A stretch of DNA of 64,000 nucleotides from Ridgeia piscesae (Eukaryota; Annelida; Polychaeta; Sabellida; Siboglinidae): positions 92,501-156,500 of the forward strand of contig JAODUO010000565.1 of the NCBI GenBank assembly GCA_025642075.2, given 5' to 3'. Every line of letters begins with the position of its first letter. Position 1 is the first letter of the stretch. The notes beneath the pieces are model-generated. The model was not told where the DNA came from. It saw only the letters and a program-made list of their open reading frames with translations, and did no database searches. Positions 4,808 through 63,677 of the stretch are shown piece by piece. A program made the position numbers and the translations under genes.

Positions 4808-4897
4808 TCCCGCGAGACGGAGTCGAACCGCCGACCTAAGGATGTCTGGTGATTGCCCGACTACAGTCCTCCGCTCTACCAACTGAGCTATCACGGG
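4808..4897 (-). tRNA. tRNA-Tyr(GTA), intron-containing, copy 1
   Basis: Read on the minus strand, the 5' acceptor strand CCCGTGA pairs with TCGCGGG and is followed by discriminator A73. The D arm GCTC..GAGC, anticodon stem GAGGA/TCCTT, loop CTGTAGA (anticodon GTA) and T arm GGCGG-TTCGACT-CCGTC are all intact. A 17-nt intron lies 3' to position 37, the standard eukaryotic site. The mature form would be 72 nt plus A73. Unlike most copies there is no clean T4 run just downstream; TCTTT is the nearest. The 5' flank (starting TGGACCCG boundary) is shared with copies 5, 7 and 9. Confidence 0.93.
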
Positions 4898-7853: not shown

Positions 7854-7943
7854 TCCCGCGAGACGGAGTCGAACCGCCGACCTAAGGATGTCTGGTGATT
7901 GCCCGACTACAGTCCTCCGCTCTACCAACTGAGCTATCACGGG
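7854..7943 (-). tRNA. tRNA-Tyr(GTA), intron-containing, copy 2
   Basis: It is identical in all arms to copy 1: acceptor CCCGTGA/TCGCGGG, anticodon GTA, 17-nt intron and T-loop TTCGACT. The minus strand has a T6 run about 8 nt past A73 (GGGAAAACCTTTTTT), a clear Pol III terminator. An AT-rich TATA-like stretch lies about 25-40 nt upstream of the 5' end. It should be functional by sequence. Confidence 0.96.
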
Positions 7944-12751: not shown

Positions 12752-12841
12752 TCCCGCGAGACGGAGTCGAACCGCCGACCTAAGGATGTCTGGTGATTGC
12801 CCAACTACAGTCCTCCGCTCTACCAACTGAGCTATCACGGG
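12752..12841 (-). tRNA. tRNA-Tyr(GTA), intron-containing, copy 3
   Basis: All mature-tRNA positions match copy 2. The only change is in the 17-nt intron (TTGGG instead of TCGGG at its start). A T4 run lies in the 3' flank (GGGAAAGCATGTTTTG on the minus strand). The upstream flank is type A with an AT-rich TATA-like segment. Confidence 0.96.
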
Positions 12842-17095: not shown

Positions 17096-17184
17096 TCCCG
17101 CGAGACGGAGTCGAACCGCCGACCTAAGGATGTCTGGTGATTCCCGACTACAGTCCTCCGCTCTACCAACTGAGCTATCACGGG
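17096..17184 (-). tRNA. tRNA-Tyr(GTA), intron-containing, copy 4
   Basis: All arms match the canonical copy. The intron is 16 nt because one base of the GGGC segment is missing. A T5 terminator lies 3' (GGGAATAACATTTTTG). The 5' flank is type B, with CTATATAATAATA about 25-37 nt upstream. This is the first intact gene of a 1,215-bp tandem duplication. Confidence 0.95.
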
Positions 17185-17768: not shown

Positions 17769-17858
17769 TCTCGCGAGACGAAGTCGAACAGCCGACCTAA
17801 GGATGTCTGGCGATTGCCCGAATACAGTCCTCCGCTCTACCAACTGAGCTATCACGGG
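17769..17858 (-). tRNA. tRNA-Tyr-like, degenerate, copy 5
   Basis: The anticodon stem and GTA remain, but acceptor pair 2-71 is mismatched (CTCGCGAG end). The T stem reads GGCTG against TCGTC with one mismatch and a wobble, and base 37 is T instead of G. A T4 run is downstream. The weakened B box and acceptor suggest a pseudogene or a poorly expressed gene. Confidence 0.65.
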
Positions 17859-18310: not shown

Positions 18311-18399
18311 TCCCGCGAGATGGAGTCGAACCGCCGACCTAAGGATGTCTGGTGATTCCCGACTACAGTCCTCCGCTCTACCAACTGAGCTATCACGGG
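18311..18399 (-). tRNA. tRNA-Tyr(GTA), intron-containing, copy 6
   Basis: It is a tandem paralogue of copy 4 with the same 16-nt intron. One substitution in the T stem (CCATC for CCGTC) breaks pair 50-64. A T5 terminator follows (GGGAAAGCATTTTTCG). It is probably still functional, though less certain than copies 1-4. Confidence 0.88.
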
Positions 18400-18983: not shown

Positions 18984-19073
18984 TCCCGCGAGACGGAGTT
19001 GAACAGCCGACCTAAGGATGTCTGGCGATTGCCCGAATACAGTCCTCCGCTCTACCAACTGAGCTATCACGGG
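18984..19073 (-). tRNA. tRNA-Tyr-like, mildly degenerate, copy 7
   Basis: It is a tandem paralogue of copy 5. The acceptor stem is intact here. The T arm reads GGCTG-TTCAACT-CCGTC, with one mismatch (52-62) and an R57 swap, and base 37 is T. The intron is 17 nt. A T4 run is downstream. Confidence 0.75.
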
Positions 19074-19525: not shown

Positions 19526-19615
19526 TCCCGCGAGACGGAGTCGAACCGCCGACCTAAGGATGTCTGGTGATTGCCCGACTACAGTCCTCCGCTCTACCAA
19601 CTGAGCTATCACGGG
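19526..19615 (-). tRNA. tRNA-Tyr(GTA), intron-containing, copy 8
   Basis: The sequence is canonical, identical in all arms to copies 1 and 2, with a 17-nt intron and a T5 terminator (GGGAAAACCTTTTTCG). Its 3' side belongs to the 1,215-bp unit and its 5' side to the type-A flank, so it sits at a junction between the two sub-families. Confidence 0.96.
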
Positions 19616-20900: not shown

Positions 20901-21355
<455 letters not shown>

Positions 21356-21440
21356 GAGAGATACAAACTAGTCGTCAGTGACACAGTGCATGTCGATAAT
21401 ATAACATAAGTGAGAGCAACCTCTTCGGGGATAAAATGTT

Positions 21441-21456
21441 GGCTCTAAAAAGAGCC
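21441..21456 (-). terminator. Histone mRNA-type 3' stem-loop
   Basis: The minus strand reads GGCTCTTTTTAGAGCC, a 6-bp stem with a TTTT loop, and matches the SLBP-binding consensus for replication-dependent histone mRNAs at every position. It starts 14 bases after the stop codon. A purine-rich CCGAAGAGG about 15-20 bases further on could serve as the U7 downstream element. Identical sequences lie at 25925-25940 and 35995-36010. Confidence 0.9.
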
Positions 21457-21470
21457 ATTTGTTTATAGCT

Positions 21471-21776
21471 TCACTCGCGGCCGTAGAGACGGTCGTCTTC
21501 AGCGGTCACTCGTTGGTCAACGCGCTGGTGGAGCTGCATCAGCTGCCCGGCCTTCATCGCCCCATACTCGTAGTACGCCGAATAGATGCCTTCGACCACC
21601 CGCAACTCCATCTCTACACAGTGACCACCACGAGGTTGCTTAGCAACACGACGACGACGCACGCGCAGTTCCTCCATACGGCGGTGCAGTACCTGCAGTT
21701 GACCACACGTGCGGTCAAGCTGCCTCTCGATGACCGACCAAGATATCGCTGACCGACGCTGGACTAGAACTTTCAT
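21471..21776 (-). CDS. 101-residue basic protein of unknown function with histone-type 3' end, copy 1
   Basis: I do not recognise the family; it is not an obvious H1, H2A, H2B, H3 or H4. The product has about 16 Arg against few Lys, a probable amphipathic helix (about residues 16-42, including QLQVLHRRMEELRVRRRR), a middle VAKQPRGGHC segment and a second helical half with YSAYYEYG near residue 68. There is no signal peptide or membrane segment. The start is fixed by a TATA box (TTATATAA, 21821-21828) about 45-52 bases upstream; CCAAT-type boxes lie near 21920 and 21945. Residues 3, 4 and 7 (V, L, R) differ from copies 2 and 3; residues 8-101 are identical in all three. A chromatin or S-phase role is inference from the mRNA end alone. 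Confidence 0.8.
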   Translation of the reverse strand: MKVLVQRRSAISWSVIERQLDRTCGQLQVLHRRMEELRVRRRRVAKQPRGGHCVEMELRVVEGIYSAYYEYGAMKAGQLMQLHQRVDQRVTAEDDRLYGRE

Positions 21777-21820
21777 TACGACGGTTGGGAGATTTGTGAT
21801 TCCATCTGCGAAGTTGACGC

Positions 21821-21828
21821 TTATATAA
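21821..21828 (-). promoter_or_regulatory. TATA box of the 101-residue gene, copy 1
   Basis: TTATATAA on the minus strand lies about 45-52 bases before the ATG, implying a 5' UTR of roughly 20 bases, as in many histone genes. It is conserved at 26305-26312 and 36375-36382. Confidence 0.75.
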
Positions 21829-23389
21829 CGACAGAGCGAATTCTGAGATTAACTCACTCGACAGCACTCGCCACCCGAACAAGAGTAACGTCTCAACCAA
21901 CATTGACTCACTTTCACCTCCAATCGGTATTTAATCCCCTTTGCATTGGAACAAAACAAAGCCTGCGCGGTCATCCGTGACGGAAAACAATTGTCCCACA
22001 AAGCAGGCGCCGAGCATAGGGCGTGCAAGTCTCGCGCGCGAAAACGAGGCTGGGGGCAGTTGGGGGCAGGAGGTCCATATACTCCATGTTAACATATAGG
22101 ACTTTGTTTTGTTTTCGTCGTAATAATCGAACTGTCCCTAAATAGCGTATTTCAGTTATATTGTCCGAAGGATTATTACAAGCAGAAGCAGTGGAACATT
22201 TTGCCTGTGACAAATGATTACGGAAATCATGAATTTTAATCCATTATTGTGGTGGTTGCCATGGCAATAGCGGCAAGTACTTGTGTTTGGCGATCTTGAC
22301 TAATAATGAAGAGTGCCAGTTTTCGCGCAGTACTACCTGTTTGGGCCAAATGTATACATGGTTATGATTATGTGCATTTAGACAACTTGTCAGATATAAG
22401 TGCTTATCGAAACCACAACGTACAGCAATGTAAAACGCAAATCCCGTAAAAGACACATACAGCCTAGCATCGTGTCGATTATCTGCACTACGTAAATCGT
22501 TGTGTCTATGATCTAGTGTGATAAACTCAACATTAAATCGGACATTTAAGATAAAAAAACGTCTAACACAAGATATTTATGAACTGATTTTCCTACTATT
22601 CATCAGTCGGAAGCTACAATTGTCATCCATCGTTAGAATATTATTCTTGTGTCCAGTCCCAATTAGTCTCGCTTAGTCCCCAATAAGCTCCAGTCGCGCG
22701 GAGTCACGCCATGTATCGTGACCCACTTGCAGGCCCTATTGTCCCGACACACCAATGCATTAGCCATATAGAGAAACTATTCATGCGTGGCGTAATGCTG
22801 TTGGAAGAAATATGATTTGGATGAGTTCGGCGGTTTGTTGTTTTATCGTTACTGACACGTCAGTCACCAGATGCTCCGTTAAATGCACCACCCACAGTCC
22901 AATATGTATTAAAGGCAGCTATAATAAATCGGCACTAGCTATTTTCATTCGTATTTTGTATTTTAATGTATCAATCAGTTTATAAATACGCATGATCGGT
23001 ATAGCCGAGTTATCCGTGTTAACGTCAAACTGTTATCGGATCGCACCACACCAAAACACGACAGGGAGAACTTTGTTGTGGGTACTTGGATAACTGGAAT
23101 TCTGTATCGGCTCAATTTATTGACACTAAGAACACATACGACCTTGCACAACGGCGGTCAGATAACCCGTCGCTACAGGGATAAAGGGGAAGTTGCCCGA
23201 TCCTCTCCCCCAAAAAGGCAGACCGGTAATTTGTAAGCGTGAAGACGTTTGTCTAGAACGTGGCTAAACATAAAAGGGTATTTCTCATTGCGGCATTATT
23301 GCTAATCACTTTTGTTTTGAAAGCGGATGTTATGTTTACCATACTGTTTCAAATTGCGAACATTGTTCCGAGCTTAATAAAGTAATTAG

Positions 23390-25715: not shown

Positions 25716-25798
25716 ATGCGCGCACGCACGTACGTACGCACGTACGCACGTACGCACGCACGTACGTACGTACGTACGCACGCACGCTCGCACGCACG

Positions 25799-25837
<39 letters not shown>
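25716..25837. repeat. (ACGC/ACGT)n(CA)n tract
   Basis: An alternating purine-pyrimidine tract lies directly downstream of the 101-residue gene; R3 has a shorter one at 35826-35907 and R1 a much longer CA-only version. Confidence 0.95.
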
Positions 25838-25839
<2 letters not shown>

Positions 25840-25924
25840 GAGAGATACAAACTAGTCGTCAGTGACACAGTGCATGTCGATAATATAACATAAGTGAGAG
25901 CAACCTCTTCGGGGATAAAATGTT

Positions 25925-25940
25925 GGCTCTAAAAAGAGCC
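25925..25940 (-). terminator. Histone mRNA-type 3' stem-loop, copy 2
   Basis: It is identical to copy 1 (GGCTCTTTTTAGAGCC on the minus strand), 14 bases past the stop, with the same purine-rich downstream sequence. Confidence 0.9.
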
Positions 25941-25954
25941 ATTTGTTTATAGCT

Positions 25955-26260
25955 TCACTCGCGGCCGTAGAGACGGTCGTCTTCAGCGGTCACTCGTTGG
26001 TCAACGCGTTGGTGGAGCTGCATCAGCTGCCCGGCCTTCATCGCCCCATACTCGTAGTACGCCGAGTAGATGCCTTCGACCACCCGCAACTCCATCTCTA
26101 CGCAGTGACCACCACGAGGTTGCTTAGCAACACGACGACGACGCACGCGCAGTTCCTCCATACGGCGGTGTAGAACCTGCAGTTGACCACACGTGCGGTC
26201 AAGCTGCCTCTCGATGACCGACCAAGATATCGCTGACCGACACTGGACTTGGGCTTTCAT
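25955..26260 (-). CDS. 101-residue basic protein of unknown function, copy 2
   Basis: The protein begins MKAQVQCRSAISW and is identical to copy 3. The upstream in-frame ATG at 26323 is rejected because its codons run through the TATA box (26305-26312). Against copy 1 the last 94 residues are unchanged although several third-position differences exist (for example GTT/GTA, CTA/CTG, TGC/TGT, TAC/TAT, CAA/CAG). The arrangement of TATA, CCAAT boxes, short 5' leader and stem-loop is intact, so this copy looks expressible. Confidence 0.8.
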   Translation of the reverse strand: MKAQVQCRSAISWSVIERQLDRTCGQLQVLHRRMEELRVRRRRVAKQPRGGHCVEMELRVVEGIYSAYYEYGAMKAGQLMQLHQRVDQRVTAEDDRLYGRE

Positions 26261-26304
26261 TGCGACGGATGGGAGATTTGTGATTCCATCTGCGAAGTTG
26301 ACGC

Positions 26305-26312
26305 TTATATAA
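26305..26312 (-). promoter_or_regulatory. TATA box of the 101-residue gene, copy 2
   Basis: TTATATAA on the minus strand, same spacing to the ATG as in copies 1 and 3. Confidence 0.75.
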
Positions 26313-26749
26313 CGACAGAGCAAATTCTGAGATTAACTCACTCGACAGCACTCACCACCCGAACAAGAGTAACGTCTCAACCAACATTGACTCACTTTCA
26401 CCTCCAATCGGTATTTAATCCCCTTTGCATTGGAACAAAACAAAGCCTGCGCGGTCATCCGTGACGGAAAACAATTGTCCCAGAAAGCAGGCGCCGAGCA
26501 TAGGGCGTGCAAGTCTCGCGCGCGAAAACGAGGCAGTTGGGGGCAGGAGGTCCATATACTCCATGTTAACATATAGGACTTTGATTGTTTTCGTCGTAAT
26601 AATCGAACTGTCCCTAAATAGCGTATTTCAGTTATATTGTCCGAAGGATTATTACAAGCAGAAGCAGTGGAACATTTTGCCTGTGACAAATGATTACGGA
26701 AATCATGAATTTTAATCCATTATTGTGGTGGTTGCCATGGCAATAGCGG

Positions 26750-35757: not shown

Positions 35758-35850
35758 CCAATATTCCATTACCTAATTTAGAGTTTTCAGATCCGTTTTA
35801 TTGTAGCAAGTAACATTTTATAACCATGCGCGCACGCACGTACGCACGTA

Positions 35851-35894
<44 letters not shown>

Positions 35895-35994
35895 CACACA
35901 CACACAGAAGAGAGATACAAACTAGTCGTCAGTGACACAGTGCATGTCGATAATATAACATAAGTGAGAGCAACCTCTTCGGGGATAAAATGTT

Positions 35995-36010
35995 GGCTCT
36001 AAAAAGAGCC
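35995..36010 (-). terminator. Histone mRNA-type 3' stem-loop, copy 3
   Basis: GGCTCTTTTTAGAGCC on the minus strand, identical in sequence and position to copies 1 and 2. Confidence 0.9.
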
Positions 36011-36024
36011 ATTTGTTTATAGCT

Positions 36025-36330
36025 TCACTCGCGGCCGTAGAGACGGTCGTCTTCAGCGGTCACTCGTTGGTCAACGCGTTGGTGGAGCTGCATCAGCTGC
36101 CCGGCCTTCATCGCCCCATACTCGTAGTACGCCGAGTAGATGCCTTCGACCACCCGCAACTCCATCTCTACACAGTGACCACCACGAGGTTGCTTAGCAA
36201 CACGACGACGACGCACGCGCAGTTCCTCCATACGGCGGTGTAGAACCTGCAGTTGACCACACGTGCGGTCAAGCTGCCTCTCGATGACCGACCAAGATAT
36301 CGCTGACCGACACTGGACTTGGGCTTTCAT
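36025..36330 (-). CDS. 101-residue basic protein of unknown function, copy 3
   Basis: The protein equals that of copy 2; the nucleotide sequences differ at one synonymous site in the coding region (TGT against TGC). TATA box (36375-36382), inverted CCAAT area and stem-loop are retained. The gene survives although much of R3 downstream has been deleted, which fits a retained function but could also reflect recent duplication. Confidence 0.8.
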   Translation of the reverse strand: MKAQVQCRSAISWSVIERQLDRTCGQLQVLHRRMEELRVRRRRVAKQPRGGHCVEMELRVVEGIYSAYYEYGAMKAGQLMQLHQRVDQRVTAEDDRLYGRE

Positions 36331-36374
36331 TGCGACGGATGGGAGATTTGTGATTCCATCTGCGAAGTTGACGC

Positions 36375-36382
36375 TTATATAA
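36375..36382 (-). promoter_or_regulatory. TATA box of the 101-residue gene, copy 3
   Basis: TTATATAA on the minus strand at the same spacing as in the other two copies. Confidence 0.75.
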
Positions 36383-37410
36383 CGACAGAGCGAGTTCTGA
36401 GATTAACTCACTCGACAGCACTCACCACCCGAACAAGAGTAACGTCTCAACCAACATTGACTCACTTTCACCTCCAATCGTTATTTAATCCCCTTTGCGT
36501 TGGAACAAAACAAAGCCTGCGCGGTCATCCGTGACGGGAAACAATTGTCCCACAAAGCAGGCGCCGAGCATTGTCCCGACACACCAATGAGGTGGCCATG
36601 TAGAGAAACTATTCATGCGTGGCGTAATGCTGACTCTACGTTGGAAGAAATGTGATTTGGATGAGTTCGGCGGTTTGTTGTTTTATCGTTACTGACACGT
36701 CAGTCACCAGATGCTCCGTTAAATACACCACCCACAGTCCAATATGTATTAAATGCAGCTATAATAAGTTGGCACTAGATATTTTCATTCGTATTTTGTA
36801 TTTTAATGTATCAATCAGTTTATAAATGCGCATATTCTGTATAGCCGAGTTATCCGTGTTAACGTGAAACTGTTATCGGGTCGCACCACACCAAAACACG
36901 ACAGGGGGAACTTTGTTGTGGGTACTTGGAAAACTGGAATTCTGTATCGGCTCAATTTATTGATACTAAGAACACATACGACCTTGCACAACGGCGGTCA
37001 GATAACCCGTCGCTACAGGGATAAAGGGGAAGATGCCCGATCCTCTCCCCAAAAAGGCACACCGGTAATTTGTAAGCGTGAAGACGTTTGTCTAGATCGT
37101 GGCTAAACATAAAAGGGTATTTCTCATTGCGGCATTATTGCTAATCACTTTTGTTTTGAAAGTGGATGTTATGTTTACCATTTGAACATGTTGCAGGCGG
37201 TACTTTTTCAAATTGCGAACATTGTTCCGAGCTTAATAAAGTAATTAAGCGCAAATTGGCAGCCTTCAACAAGCCTATTGTAGTTATATGAACGCAATGT
37301 TAAATGAATAAAATATAAAAGCTAGGAGGTGGCAATCTCGCTTTAGCGGACCCATATCCCTAAACCAACAGTCACCATCCTCGTTTTAATCATTAATGAA
37401 AACAGTAATG

Positions 37411-42429: not shown

Positions 42430-44074
42430 TCGTATTTGGAACATTGTGACCGTGTGGTTTGAACATTGCGACTATGTGGTTGGAACATTCGACTGTGTGG
42501 TTGGAACATTGCGACTATGTGGTTGGAACACTGTGACTGTGTGGTTAGAACATTGCGACTGTTTGGTTGGAACATTCGACTGTGTGGTTGGAACATTGCG
42601 ACTATGTGGTTGGAACACTGCGACTGTGTGGTTTGAACATTGCGACTGTGTGGTTGGAACATTCGACTGTGTGGTTGGAACATTGCGACTATGTGGTTGG
42701 AACACTGTGACTGTGTGGTTAGAACATTGCGACTGTTTGGTTGGAACACTGCGACTGTGTGGTTGGAACATTGCGACTATGTGGTTGGAACACTGTGACT
42801 GTGTGGTTAGAACATTGCGACTGTTTGGTTGGAACATTGCGACTATGTGGTTCGAACATTGCGGCTATGTGGTTGGAACGTTGCGACTGTGTGGTTGGAA
42901 CACTGCGACTGTGTGGTTGGAACGTTGCGACTGTGTGGTTGGAACGTTGCGACTGTGTGGTTGGAACGTTGCGACTGTGTGGATGGAACGTTGCGACTGT
43001 GTGGTTGGAACGTTGCGACTGTGTGGTTGGAACGTTGCGACTGTGTGGTTGGAACGTTGCGACTGTGTGGTTGAAACACTGCGACTGTGTGGTTGGAACG
43101 TTGCGACTGTGTGGTTGGAACGTTGCGACTGTGTGGTTGGAACGTTGCGACTATGTGGTTGGAACACTGTGACTGTGTGGTTAGAACATTGCGACTGTTT
43201 GGTTGGAACATTCGACTGTGTGGTTGGAACATTGCGACTATGTGGTTGGAACACTGCGACTGTGTGGTTTGAACATTGCGACTGTGTGGTTGGAACATTC
43301 GACTGTGTGGTTGGAACATTGCGACTATGTGGTTGGAACATTCGACTGTGTGGTTGGAACATTGCGACTATGTGGTTGGAACACTGTGACTGTGTGGTTA
43401 GAACATTGCGACTGTGTGGTTGGAACATTCGACTGTGTGGTTGGAACATTGCGACTATGTGGTTGGAACACTGTGACTGTGTGGTTAGAACATTGCGACT
43501 GTTTGGTTGGAACACTGCGACTGTGTGGTTGGAACATTGCGACTATGTGGTTGGAACACTGTGACTGTGTGGTTAGAACATTGCGACTGTTTGGTTGGAA
43601 CATTGCGACTATGTGGTTCGAACATTGCGGCTATGTGGTTGGAACGTTGCGACTGTGTGGTTGGAACACTGCGACTGTGTGGTTGGAACGTTGCGACTGT
43701 GTGGTTGGAACGTTGCGACTGTGTGGTTGGAACGTTGCGACTGTGTGGTTGGAACGTTGCGACTGTGTGGTTGGAACGTTGCGACTGTGTGGTTGGAACG
43801 TTGCGACTGTGTGGTTGGAACTTGCGACTGTGTGGTTGGAACGTTGCGACTGTGTGGTTGGAACGTTGCGACTGTGTGGTTGGAACGTTGCGACTGTTGT
43901 GGTTGGAACATTGCGACTATGTGGTTGGAACATTGCGACTGTGTGGTTCGAATATTGCGACTGTGTGGTTGGAACGTTGCGACTATGTGGTTGGAACATT
44001 GCGACTATGTGGTTGGAACATTGCGACTGTGTGGTTCGAATATTGCGACTGTGTGGTTGGAACGTTGCGACTAG
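42430..44074. repeat. 22-bp minisatellite, about 74 copies
   Basis: Monomer core GACTGTGTGGTTGGAACATT with a leading GC; variants have CGTT, CACT, CTATG or GTTTG. Shortened 20-21 bp monomers occur. A 766-bp higher-order repeat links about 42741-42900 to 43507-43666. Open frames such as plus 42359-43564 are repeat artefacts. Confidence 0.97.
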
Positions 44075-58123: not shown

Positions 58124-61100
58124 TTTGTATTGACGATCGCCATCTTTAAAAATTAAGGAAATGAATACCGGAGGATATGATTGCAAATACGTGTAAAGTT
58201 TGTAGGAAGTATCTATGGGAAGCCACATATATGCAAGAATAACCGAACGCGTAATACTTCAAAGGTACCAATAATGTGTGGTAAAACATCTCCGTTGACC
58301 CAATGAAAACAGTGGACCGTTAAACCTGATTGTACACACTGAAATTAAATATCATCCTTAAAAGTTAACTTGAATACCTGAAAACTGACAACATCACGAC
58401 GCACCAGCAGGACATTGTCACTGACGTGTCATAGAAATAGCGTCGTTGTAATGCAGCAATGGATACTAGTATTTCTGCTTGAACAAAAACACACACAATT
58501 TTAGTTAAAAGTGAATTTGTTTAATGGCGAATTTTCTTTAAGAGCTTTTTATCTGAGAGAAACTGTCCCAATAAGATTAATCTAATGATACGTGTCCTGT
58601 TTTAGGCTTTGGGAGTCTGATGCCTTACCTGGCTGTCTACATGAAGATGACAGGTCTGTCACCTTCAGAAACATCGCTCGCTTGTGGCGTAGTGTATATC
58701 GTCAATGCATTCAGTCATCCCTTCATCGGAGGCTTAGCAGACAAATTTAACGCACACAAGAAGGGCATGATGCTGCTTTGTCTCCTGTCGGCCACTTTCC
58801 ACGGTTGTATGTTGTTCGTGCCGCAGAGATCGGCGCCGGAAACAAATCATTTGTCCAAAGATGTTCAGCTGCATTGCGGGACAAATGGCGCACATGTCTT
58901 CGCTTGCAGTGGCAGCCCTGCGGATAATCAACCCTTAGAAGTAGCGTTCAATGTAAGCAGCAATATGGAAAACAATTCTTATGCAGATAACGGCGCAAGA
59001 TATTTGTCTTTCAACGCTGCCGCTTGCAAATGGACATGCAGTGTTGGACAGCGAGAGAATGGCGGCCAACGAGGTGAGCAAGTATGCTTTGCGCGGTCTC
59101 TTCACAAACAATGCATAGAGTTGCATGACGCAACGACGTTTGCATTTGGCGTGAACAAATTACAACGCAAACCTGCCGAAAACTGCAGAGCGACGGAAAC
59201 CAGCAACACCGACGAACAGAGCTGTCACTGTTATGCGATGTTGTCATTTGTTATCGACAATGACATCTTCGAACAAATGGATTGTCAGAATCAAACCGCT
59301 CTGACGTGTACAATCGACCACTGTGGTCCGGTCGGTGGCTACGTCGCACGGAACACGGCCAAACGAGCGACCGCTACAGACAGAAAAGGATATCATTTCG
59401 GATGGATATTTTGGGGCATCGCGATATTGTACCTTCTCGGACAGATGACGTTACAACCGGTGTTTGGGCTCACCGACGCCATGACGTACACAGTCCTTGG
59501 GGAAGACCTCCACAAGTGGGGAAGACAGAGACTATGGGGTACGATTGGCTGCGCCGTATTCGGTCTGCTCTCAGGAGTAATGATGGACGCCTACGGCCAC
59601 GGGAAGAACGAATACACCATGGCCTTCCTGCTTTTTGCATTATTCATGATACTGACGTCAATTTCAGCGTGCCAATACAACTTGCGTGATGTTGCCGACA
59701 AACGTTCATCACAAGTGTTCCGTGACGTTCTTAGCCTTGTGAGGAGACCAGATGCATTTGTCCTCTTTTGTGTCGTCCTCATATTCGGCATGTACCAAGG
59801 ACTCATCTATACATTCCTCTTCTGGTACCTGAAACTCCTCGGCGACGTTCCGCAAGTACTACTTGGCCTGTGCCTCGTGCACGGCTGTGTTCCGGAGACC
59901 ATCATGCTGTTCTTCTCCGGTAAGATCATACGCAAGATCGGCCACGTCTTCTCCATGTCACTCGTATTTGTGGCATTCGCCGTTCGCATGGGCAGTTACT
60001 CTTTCTTGCGCAACCCGTGGATGGTGCTGTGTATCGAGCCGCTTCACGCCATCACGTTCGGTTTGATGTACGCAAACGCGTCGACATACGCCAGTCGTAT
60101 TACTCCGCCGGGTACTCACGGATCGGTGCAAAGCATCATTGGGTCGCTCTTCTTTAGCTTCGGTAAGTTGTTTTGTCACGCAGAAGAAAGTGGTGAATAT
60201 GCGCATCTCGTCATAACTAATTTATGTGTGGCGATGATTTCTTTACATGTAAGTATTTGCGTTGCGTGCGGTTTCCTGTAACCGTCCTCCATAGTGATTT
60301 AGTATACGGCACAATTAATTGGATAAGTTAGGACACATTATCAGGATGTATCTACATTATTGTGCCACTACGCCGTTACCTTGTAGAATTGTGTATAAAT
60401 TATAGATATACCCACTTGAATCCATTTGGAAAAAGAGTAATGTGATGTACTAATATAAACATTTCGCATACAATGTACCGCACAGTTCTGTAAACATTTT
60501 AGGAACAAGCCTTGGAGCGTTGCTCGGTGGACCTCTCATTGAAAACTACGGAGGAGCGGCCACATTCCGGATGTTCGCCGTCTCTGCCCTCGTCTTTCTC
60601 GTTCTCTACGTCATCGCTCAGAAGTTCTGGATACGGGACGGAGAAGCTACAGAGGCGATGGAAGTCTCGAAAGGTTGGTATTAGTGCGATTAACATAACT
60701 TTGTATATTTACTTAAACAAATATCAAAACACAAACAACTTCAATATAGTGTACGCACTTTACTTATTTTGAATCTTGCTGTACTCGAACAGCGTGGGTC
60801 ATACATGCTGCATAAAAACAATAAGACTTATATTGCACAAGTTTACAATTTCGCATGCTTGTGCGTTCATTTTATTTTATCAAACAGCGTGCAGCAGTTG
60901 TTTGTTAATATCTATGAGACACCACTTTAACACGAGGCAGTTTGGTCATAGATATTTATTTATTTAAAAAATTAACACAGTGTTCGTAATTTAAAAACAA
61001 TGATCAAGGTATCCAAATTATAATTATCACGACCATGTCAACGTTCGGAACTTGGGTGATGCGACAACAGAACAGCTAAACAAAACACTCAGCTTCCCAG

Positions 61101-63587: not shown

Positions 63588-63677
63588 CCCGTGATAGCTC
63601 AGTTGGTAGAGCGGAGGACTGTAGTCGGGCAATCACCAGACATCCTTAGGTCGGCGGTTCGACTCCGTCTCGCGGGA
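63588..63677 (+). tRNA. tRNA-Tyr(GTA), intron-containing, copy 9
   Basis: It matches the canonical copies base for base in all arms, with the same 17-nt intron, but on the plus strand. A T6 terminator follows (GGGAAAACAATTTTTTG). It is 44 kb from the main array. Confidence 0.97.

What the first reader, a model, noticed from the sequence alone, without database searches (positions are those of the whole stretch)
21441..21828. A non-histone-like 101-residue gene with complete histone-type gene architecture
The minus strand carries TATA and CCAAT boxes, a very short 5' leader, a 101-codon Arg-rich frame, a canonical GGCTCTTTTTAGAGCC stem-loop 14 bases after the stop and a purine-rich downstream element. 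In animals this 3' end is almost confined to replication-dependent histone mRNAs. The protein does not resemble any core or linker histone I know. It may be a very divergent histone, a new S-phase or germline basic protein, or an old histone gene whose frame has changed.
Basis: partly seen in the sequence, partly recalled or inferred. Interest (0 to 1): 0.88.

Follow-up and report, generated by a model that had tools for sequence, protein, structure and literature searches.

The report
Non-histone gene family with histone-type mRNA ends
A deep-sea tubeworm carries a family of small, unnamed, non-histone genes whose messages appear built to end in the hairpin thought to be special to histone messages, and some of its jumping genes carry the same ending.

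Summary
The window comes from Ridgeia piscesae. The 101-codon gene has three tandem copies here, each followed by a perfect GGCTCTTTTTAGAGCC hairpin (0.16 expected). It belongs to a non-histone family without a Pfam name: 20 loci found in this genome, some decayed, and 435 homologues by profile, the named ones in annelids, bivalves and a gastropod. An intact histone-type hairpin lies 10-55 nt after the stop at 16 of the 20 loci. Diverged paralogue pairs give dN/dS 0.08-0.20. TATA boxes stand at histone-like distance in 11 of 13 hairpin loci examined. One 151-aa member lacks TATA and hairpin and has poly(A) signals, like a replacement histone variant. The family is not a divergent or frameshifted histone by sequence. 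Unexpectedly, the same hairpin also follows Merlin/IS1595 transposase ORFs, a Mutator-like ORF and DUF7869-type ORFs. Best reading: a lophotrochozoan small-protein family expressed through the SLBP histone-mRNA pathway, hence probably S-phase or maternal. Genes, hairpin and conservation are shown; processing, timing and protein function are inferred. No U7 gene was found and no fold could be run.

The parts
21471..21776 (-). Copy 1: 101-codon ORF (finding); non-histone small protein
   Evidence: ORF list; 97% identical to the copy-3 protein, whose 10 homologues have E 5.7e-55 to 2.4e-13
21441..21456 (-). Copy 1: histone-type stem-loop GGCTCTTTTTAGAGCC, 14 nt after the stop
21415..21428 (-). 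Copy 1: purine-rich CCGAAGAGG + TTGCT, HDE-like, 12 nt after the stem-loop
   Evidence: own regular expression, not a curated model
21820..21827 (-). Copy 1: TATA box TATATAAG, 51 nt before ATG
21920..21924 (-). Copy 1: inverted CCAAT box (ATTGG)
21945..21949 (-). Copy 1: CCAAT box; also in copy 2 (26433-26429), not in copy 3
25955..26260 (-). Copy 2: same 101-codon gene
25925..25940 (-). Copy 2: stem-loop
25899..25912 (-). Copy 2: HDE-like element
26304..26311 (-). Copy 2: TATA box
36025..36330 (-). Copy 3: same 101-codon gene, protein identical to copy 2
35995..36010 (-). Copy 3: stem-loop
35969..35982 (-). Copy 3: HDE-like element
36374..36381 (-). Copy 3: TATA box
21292..22273 (.). Segment carrying copy 1, duplicated at 25776-26749 (96.8%) and, from 21296 to 22017, at 35850-36571 (96.8%)

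Best explanation
These are members of an old lophotrochozoan family of small non-histone proteins (two conserved, probably helical segments; an acidic tail in many but not in the window copies). The hairpin-bearing genes have an uninterrupted ORF, are mostly TATA-driven, and end in a histone 3' stem-loop with, in some members, a purine-rich downstream element. SLBP would bind the hairpin, the pre-mRNA would be cut a few bases after it as for replication-dependent histones, and the non-polyadenylated mRNA would be made in S phase or stored in oocytes and destroyed when replication stops. A 151-aa member (C17) without hairpin or TATA but with poly(A) signals would be the constitutive counterpart, as H3.3 is to H3. 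The protein most likely acts in chromatin or replication alongside new histones, for example as a helical partner of histones or DNA. Shown: genes, hairpin, conservation, selection. Inferred: processing, timing, role.
For: Intact hairpin at 16 of 20 loci. Stem 60 of 60 cells paired over 10 distinct family sequences with one compensatory C-G to U-A change. Hairpin pattern 144 times in 628 Mb against 2 for the reversed control. TATA 51-76 nt before ATG in 11 of 13 hairpin loci examined; histone genes of the same genome 48-86 nt in 6 of 8 examined. dN/dS 0.08-0.20 for diverged pairs. Homologues 10, 45 and 435. Codons of 3 of 148 fetched homologues can spell the flanked hairpin; none in 200 shuffles. 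SLBP RNA-binding domain over cut-off in this genome. C17 without hairpin, with poly(A) signals.
Against: No transcript, timing or 3'-end data. No U7 found (Rfam best E 2.64; pattern 34 against 42 for the control; 11 candidates without a convincing 3' hairpin). HDE-like element in only 5 of 13 unique family flanks, a number that shuffles also reached (mean 0.59, maximum 5). The window hairpin is below Rfam's cut-off; of 9 family hairpin loci sent to only 4 matched at E 1e-3, none over the cut-off; the genome-wide Rfam search listed no family locus among 76 matches, though it scored only 75 of 80145 candidates. Hairpin covariation does not exceed shuffles (259 of 500). C106 has TATA but no hairpin. 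No fold obtained, so the protein's role is a guess.
Confidence: 0.72

Rival explanations
1. The small genes are passengers or parts of DNA transposons: in this genome transposons carry the same hairpin, so the hairpin marks mobile-element 3' ends and the family was spread or donated by them.
For: Merlin/IS1595 ORFs, a Mutator-like ORF and DUF7869-type ORFs carry the hairpin after their stop; family copies are multiplied locally.
Against: Family members are much diverged, under purifying selection and have homologues in several animal groups; none of 7 family ORFs sent matched a transposase family over cut-off. Terminal repeats around family genes were not searched for.
Confidence: 0.1
2. The hairpin is kept but the mRNAs are polyadenylated in practice; the hairpin serves only translation or stability, or is a relic.
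For: A few public homologues read past the hairpin position, as longer or unprocessed RNAs or gene models would; HDE weak in many members; no U7 found.
Against: Near-invariant hairpin and A-rich 5' flank among much diverged paralogues; the 115 nt after the stop show 0 differences among the three window copies.
Confidence: 0.15
3. A very divergent histone or histone-derived protein.
For: Histone-type gene architecture; small, Arg-rich in the window copies.
Against: hhalign probability at most 0.3 % against four Ridgeia histones; no PDB sequence match for the profile; no Pfam match over cut-off.
Confidence: 0.03
4. An old histone gene whose frame has changed, keeping promoter and hairpin.
For: Would explain promoter and 3' end at once (no call bears on it directly).
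Against: The same frame is conserved in a family of several hundred homologues and under purifying selection.
Confidence: 0.01

Closest known systems
Metazoan replication-dependent histone genes (stem-loop / SLBP / U7 3'-end class; Rfam RF00032)
   Same: Uninterrupted ORF, TATA box at similar distance, short 3' UTR, same 16-nt hairpin with A-rich 5' flank, purine-rich downstream element in some members, local tandem copies
   Different: Protein unrelated to core histones by sequence; family contigs are not among the histone-bearing contigs seen here; HDE less regular; processing untested
Replacement histone variants such as H3.3 (works-like comparison for the C17 member)
   Same: No stem-loop, no TATA, poly(A) signals, beside hairpin-bearing paralogues
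   Different: Not a histone; splicing and polyadenylation not shown
Merlin / IS1595 (ISXO2-like, PF12762) DNA transposons of the same genome (the name Merlin is recalled; Pfam gives IS1595/ISXO2)
   Same: Same histone-type hairpin after the ORF, in some with an AAAGAGTTGCTA downstream element
   Different: Transposase, not the small family

Membership tests
Histones (core or linker) | Histone-fold or linker-histone sequence | tested here: not met
   (core histones by hhalign; linker histone only through Pfam)
Histones (core or linker) | Histone fold in three dimensions | not tested
Histone-type stem-loop mRNA class | 16-nt stem-loop shortly after the stop | tested here: met
   16 of 20 loci
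Histone-type stem-loop mRNA class | Rfam Histone3 model over its gathering score | tested here: not met
   28.8 bits against 34; whole-window scan lists none; best family locus is L018 at 32.0
Histone-type stem-loop mRNA class | Downstream purine-rich element able to pair with U7 | tested here: inconclusive
   5 of 13 unique flanks by an own pattern, shuffle maximum also 5; no U7 found
Histone-type stem-loop mRNA class | SLBP encoded in the genome | tested here: met
   PF15247, two pieces on C443, both over cut-off
Histone-type stem-loop mRNA class | Non-polyadenylated, replication-coupled mRNA | not testable with these tools
   needs RNA
New small-protein family (this report) | Conserved FRRACDQI..LN and EGVRNMFYEYA segments | tested here: met
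   alignment A1 of 38: C24, Q26, R40, E62, G63, Y69, Y71, L82 of the window protein at least 90% conserved

The most novel reading that the evidence does not exclude
In lophotrochozoans the histone 3'-end pathway is a general S-phase or maternal expression programme, used by a dedicated non-histone protein family and hijacked by two or three kinds of DNA transposon to time transposase to replication; the long-held rule that only histone mRNAs end in this stem-loop is wrong.
Probability: 0.5. Interest if true: 0.95.

Novelty: new variant of a known kind. Interest (0 to 1): 0.87.

Why it matters
[quoted passage not shown] passage seen). A conserved non-histone family with this ending would break that rule, point to an unknown protein made in step with histones, and make the question of what else the pathway controls directly testable. 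Transposons carrying the ending would be a new way of tying mobile-element expression to the cell cycle.

Tried and rejected
Frameshifted histone: rejected by the conserved frame. Divergent histone: rejected by sequence profile. Chance hairpin: rejected. Viral or prokaryotic origin: no relatives confirmed in viral contigs or genome contigs (one scan each, one peptide pattern each). U7 searches by Rfam and by pattern failed. Covariation of the hairpin gives little, because 5 of 6 pairs never vary. The structure prediction of A1 was never accepted, so no fold search followed. NCBIfam gave 8 weak, scattered families, best E 0.0027.

Full report
Where the window lies. The window is G000:C565:92501-156500 of a 628-Mb genome. 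The protein of a fourth close copy, on contig C228 (450,850 bases), reads the same as P0001, named NP493_229g03068 of Ridgeia piscesae and held on a contig of 450,850 bases. I therefore take the genome to be Ridgeia piscesae, a vestimentiferan tubeworm.

On the minus strand lie a TATA box, CCAAT-type boxes, a 101-codon ORF, a perfect histone-type hairpin 14 nt after the stop, and CCGAAGAGGTTGCT downstream. The hairpin occurs three times in the window, each after a copy of the same gene, against 0.16 expected with three mismatches allowed. Rfam's Histone3 model matches with E 1.3e-6 in a short search but stays below its curated score. The three copies lie in local duplications about 97% identical. 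Copies 2 and 3 encode identical proteins.

A protein family. Three own-genome searches, with one more copy (L091) found through the hairpin pattern, give 20 loci: C565 three, C228, C921, C106, C163 two, C2620, C17, C744, C469 three, C90 four, C827, C1532. The two C90 copies near 79 and 81 kb are weak or indirect members (E 0.0011 and 0.157 for the first; the second matches the first). C2620 encodes the same ORF as one C163 copy and may be a haplotype. C827 has stops, and the C469 copy near 116 kb, C1532 and C90 near 81 kb look decayed to me. Public proteins: 10, 45 and, by profile, 435 homologues (E up to 10, 1 and 0.01), the last among the 8,000 best candidates with 120 listed; no listed row shows a Pfam domain. 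The phylum assignments are my knowledge of these genera. In 7 family proteins no Pfam model passed its cut-off, no PDB sequence matched the profile, and profile comparison with Ridgeia H3, H4, H2A and H2B gave probabilities of 0.0-0.3 %. The first conserved segment has a helical hydrophobic period (peak at 100 degrees); the second is mixed. Eleven pairs were compared for selection: diverged pairs give dN/dS 0.08, 0.13, 0.13 and 0.20, with dS of 0.96-3.47, so partly near saturation; in two more pairs synonymous change was saturated and gave no value; close pairs give 0 to 0.60 on few changes (0.60 for the two C469 copies, 0.40 for C565 against C228). By charge, 7 of 15 loci encode acidic proteins (pI 4.4-5.0), the others 7.8-10.0.

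The hairpin goes with the family. An intact hairpin (6 of 6 pairs) follows the stop at 16 of the 20 loci, 10-55 nt away. A decayed C469 copy keeps one with 5 of 6 pairs; C17, C106 and C827 have none within the fetched stretch, best windows differing at 5 or 6 positions. Over ten distinct sequences all 60 cells pair, with one compensatory change, but five pairs never vary and shuffles do as well in 259 of 500, so covariation is no evidence by itself. TATA boxes lie 51-76 nt before the ATG in 11 of 13 hairpin loci examined, with the four C565/C228 copies and the two identical C163/C2620 copies counted separately, and are missing in C921 and C744. Histone genes of this genome show 48-86 nt in 6 of 8 examined; one of the two misses had only 35 bases of upstream sequence. 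The 151-aa C17 member has no TATA, no hairpin, downstream poly(A) signals, and an upstream sequence that looks to me like a splice acceptor. A protein of 158 aa (P0011, 97%) and a Lamellibrachia protein (P0012, 77%) match it. Against the reading: the genome-wide Rfam search lists no family locus among its 76 matches, having scored only 75 of 80145 candidates and ringing below cut-off in 14 of 14 control genomes; of 9 family hairpin loci given to (L001, L004, L013, L018) matched at E 1e-3, all below the cut-off.

Other species. I could not fetch flanking DNA outside Ridgeia. Of 148 fetched homologues, three (P0004, P0054, P0115) contain peptides whose codons can spell the hairpin with its A-rich flank; 200 shuffles gave none; a second pattern with a shorter flank gave two (P0004, P0054) against a mean of 0.025. 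P0004 and P0054 resemble siboglinid proteins, so only P0115, of unknown species, speaks beyond them. P0083, which groups with the Littorina protein, reads KQTRLFSEPAILQERIL, compatible by eye with a hairpin followed by CAAGAAAGA, the classical HDE core as I recall it; it did not pass the strict test. P0033 has a looser match. These are hints, not DNA sequence.

The rest of the genome. The pattern AAANGGYTCTNNTNAGARCC occurs 144 times against 2 for the reversed pattern; not all places were listed. By tblastn against the hairpin strand in loci L030-L094, which overlap so that some genes count more than once, hairpin occurrences follow H4 (18), H2B (25), H2A (15), H3 (4), Merlin-type ORFs (16 in 15 loci), the Mutator-like ORF (1), an ORF of L089 and L067 that resembles it by eye (4 in 2 loci), a DUF7869-like ORF (5), the small family (1), and nothing recognised (4: L030, L083, L088, L094). 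Pfam confirmed PF12762 (ISXO2-like transposase) in 3 of 3 ORFs sent and found nothing in the L067 ORF; of four further ORFs one (L085) matched PF20700 Mutator-like transposase, one (L087) PF25273 DUF7869, and two (L089, L081) nothing. That DUF7869 ORFs belong to transposons is recalled, not tested. In eight Merlin loci the hairpin and its downstream AAAGG or AAAGA..TTGCT lie inside the repeated element, similarity running on for about 70 to over 200 bases. By a simple HDE-like pattern 15 of 23 histone-set, 5 of 13 family and 10 of 22 transposon-set unique flanks score, against shuffled means of 1.16, 0.59 and 0.99 and a maximum of 5 in each; the sets include a few loci that one search left unassigned. 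SLBP's RNA-binding domain is present; U7 was not found.

Interpretation. The simplest account is that this family uses the histone 3'-end pathway. Its mRNAs would then be non-polyadenylated and tied to S phase, or stored in oocytes. The C17 member would be the replication-independent form. A role beside new chromatin is a guess from presumed co-regulation and from charge (basic window copies, acidic tails elsewhere). For the transposons, an S-phase-limited transposase would favour jumping during replication; this too is inference.

Literature. [quoted passage not shown] PMC2642717 (passages seen) uses similar words. PMC3156773 (passages seen) describes orphan histone variants with degenerate or absent hairpins; PMC1924863 (passages seen) describes the HDE and U7. 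In the held open library, searches for 'histone stem-loop' with 'transposase', for Merlin with transposon, 'histone stem' and S phase, for Ridgeia with histone and stem-loop, and for 'stem-loop binding protein' with 'non-histone mRNA' returned no paper. Other searches showed none describing such a family in the titles and abstract starts listed; one search listed 25 of 91. The library lacks most subscription papers.

Noticed in passing
G000 loci L062, L067, L069-L082, L084-L087, L089, L092, L093: Merlin/IS1595 ORFs, a Mutator-like ORF and DUF7869-like ORFs are followed by histone-type stem-loops, several with HDE-like elements; one locus (L089) has three hairpins in a row.
   Followed up: partly
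L005 (C921): A second, imperfect hairpin (GCTCTCCTCAGAGC) follows the first one; L080-L083 and L093 also carry tandem hairpins.
   Followed up: no
window 4808-4897, 7854-7943, 12752-12841, 17096-17184, 17769-17858, 18311-18399, 18984-19073, 19526-19615 (minus), 63588-63677 (plus): Nine similar tRNA genes by Rfam, six read, apparently intron-containing tRNA-Tyr (anticodon GTA read by eye); ARAGORN listed none.
   Followed up: partly
window 42436-44073: Large minisatellite (spacing of matches suggests units of about 22 nt) kept open in several frames.
   Followed up: no
window 58620-60281: 553-aa ORF on the plus strand that looks like a membrane transporter of the MFS type (by eye).
   Followed up: no
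L030 (C900:88360), L060 (C4588:17484), L088 (C779): Histone-type hairpin sites with no recognised ORF upstream; L030 lies in a histone cluster; L060 scored 37.0 bits with Rfam but does not match the strict pattern.
   Followed up: no
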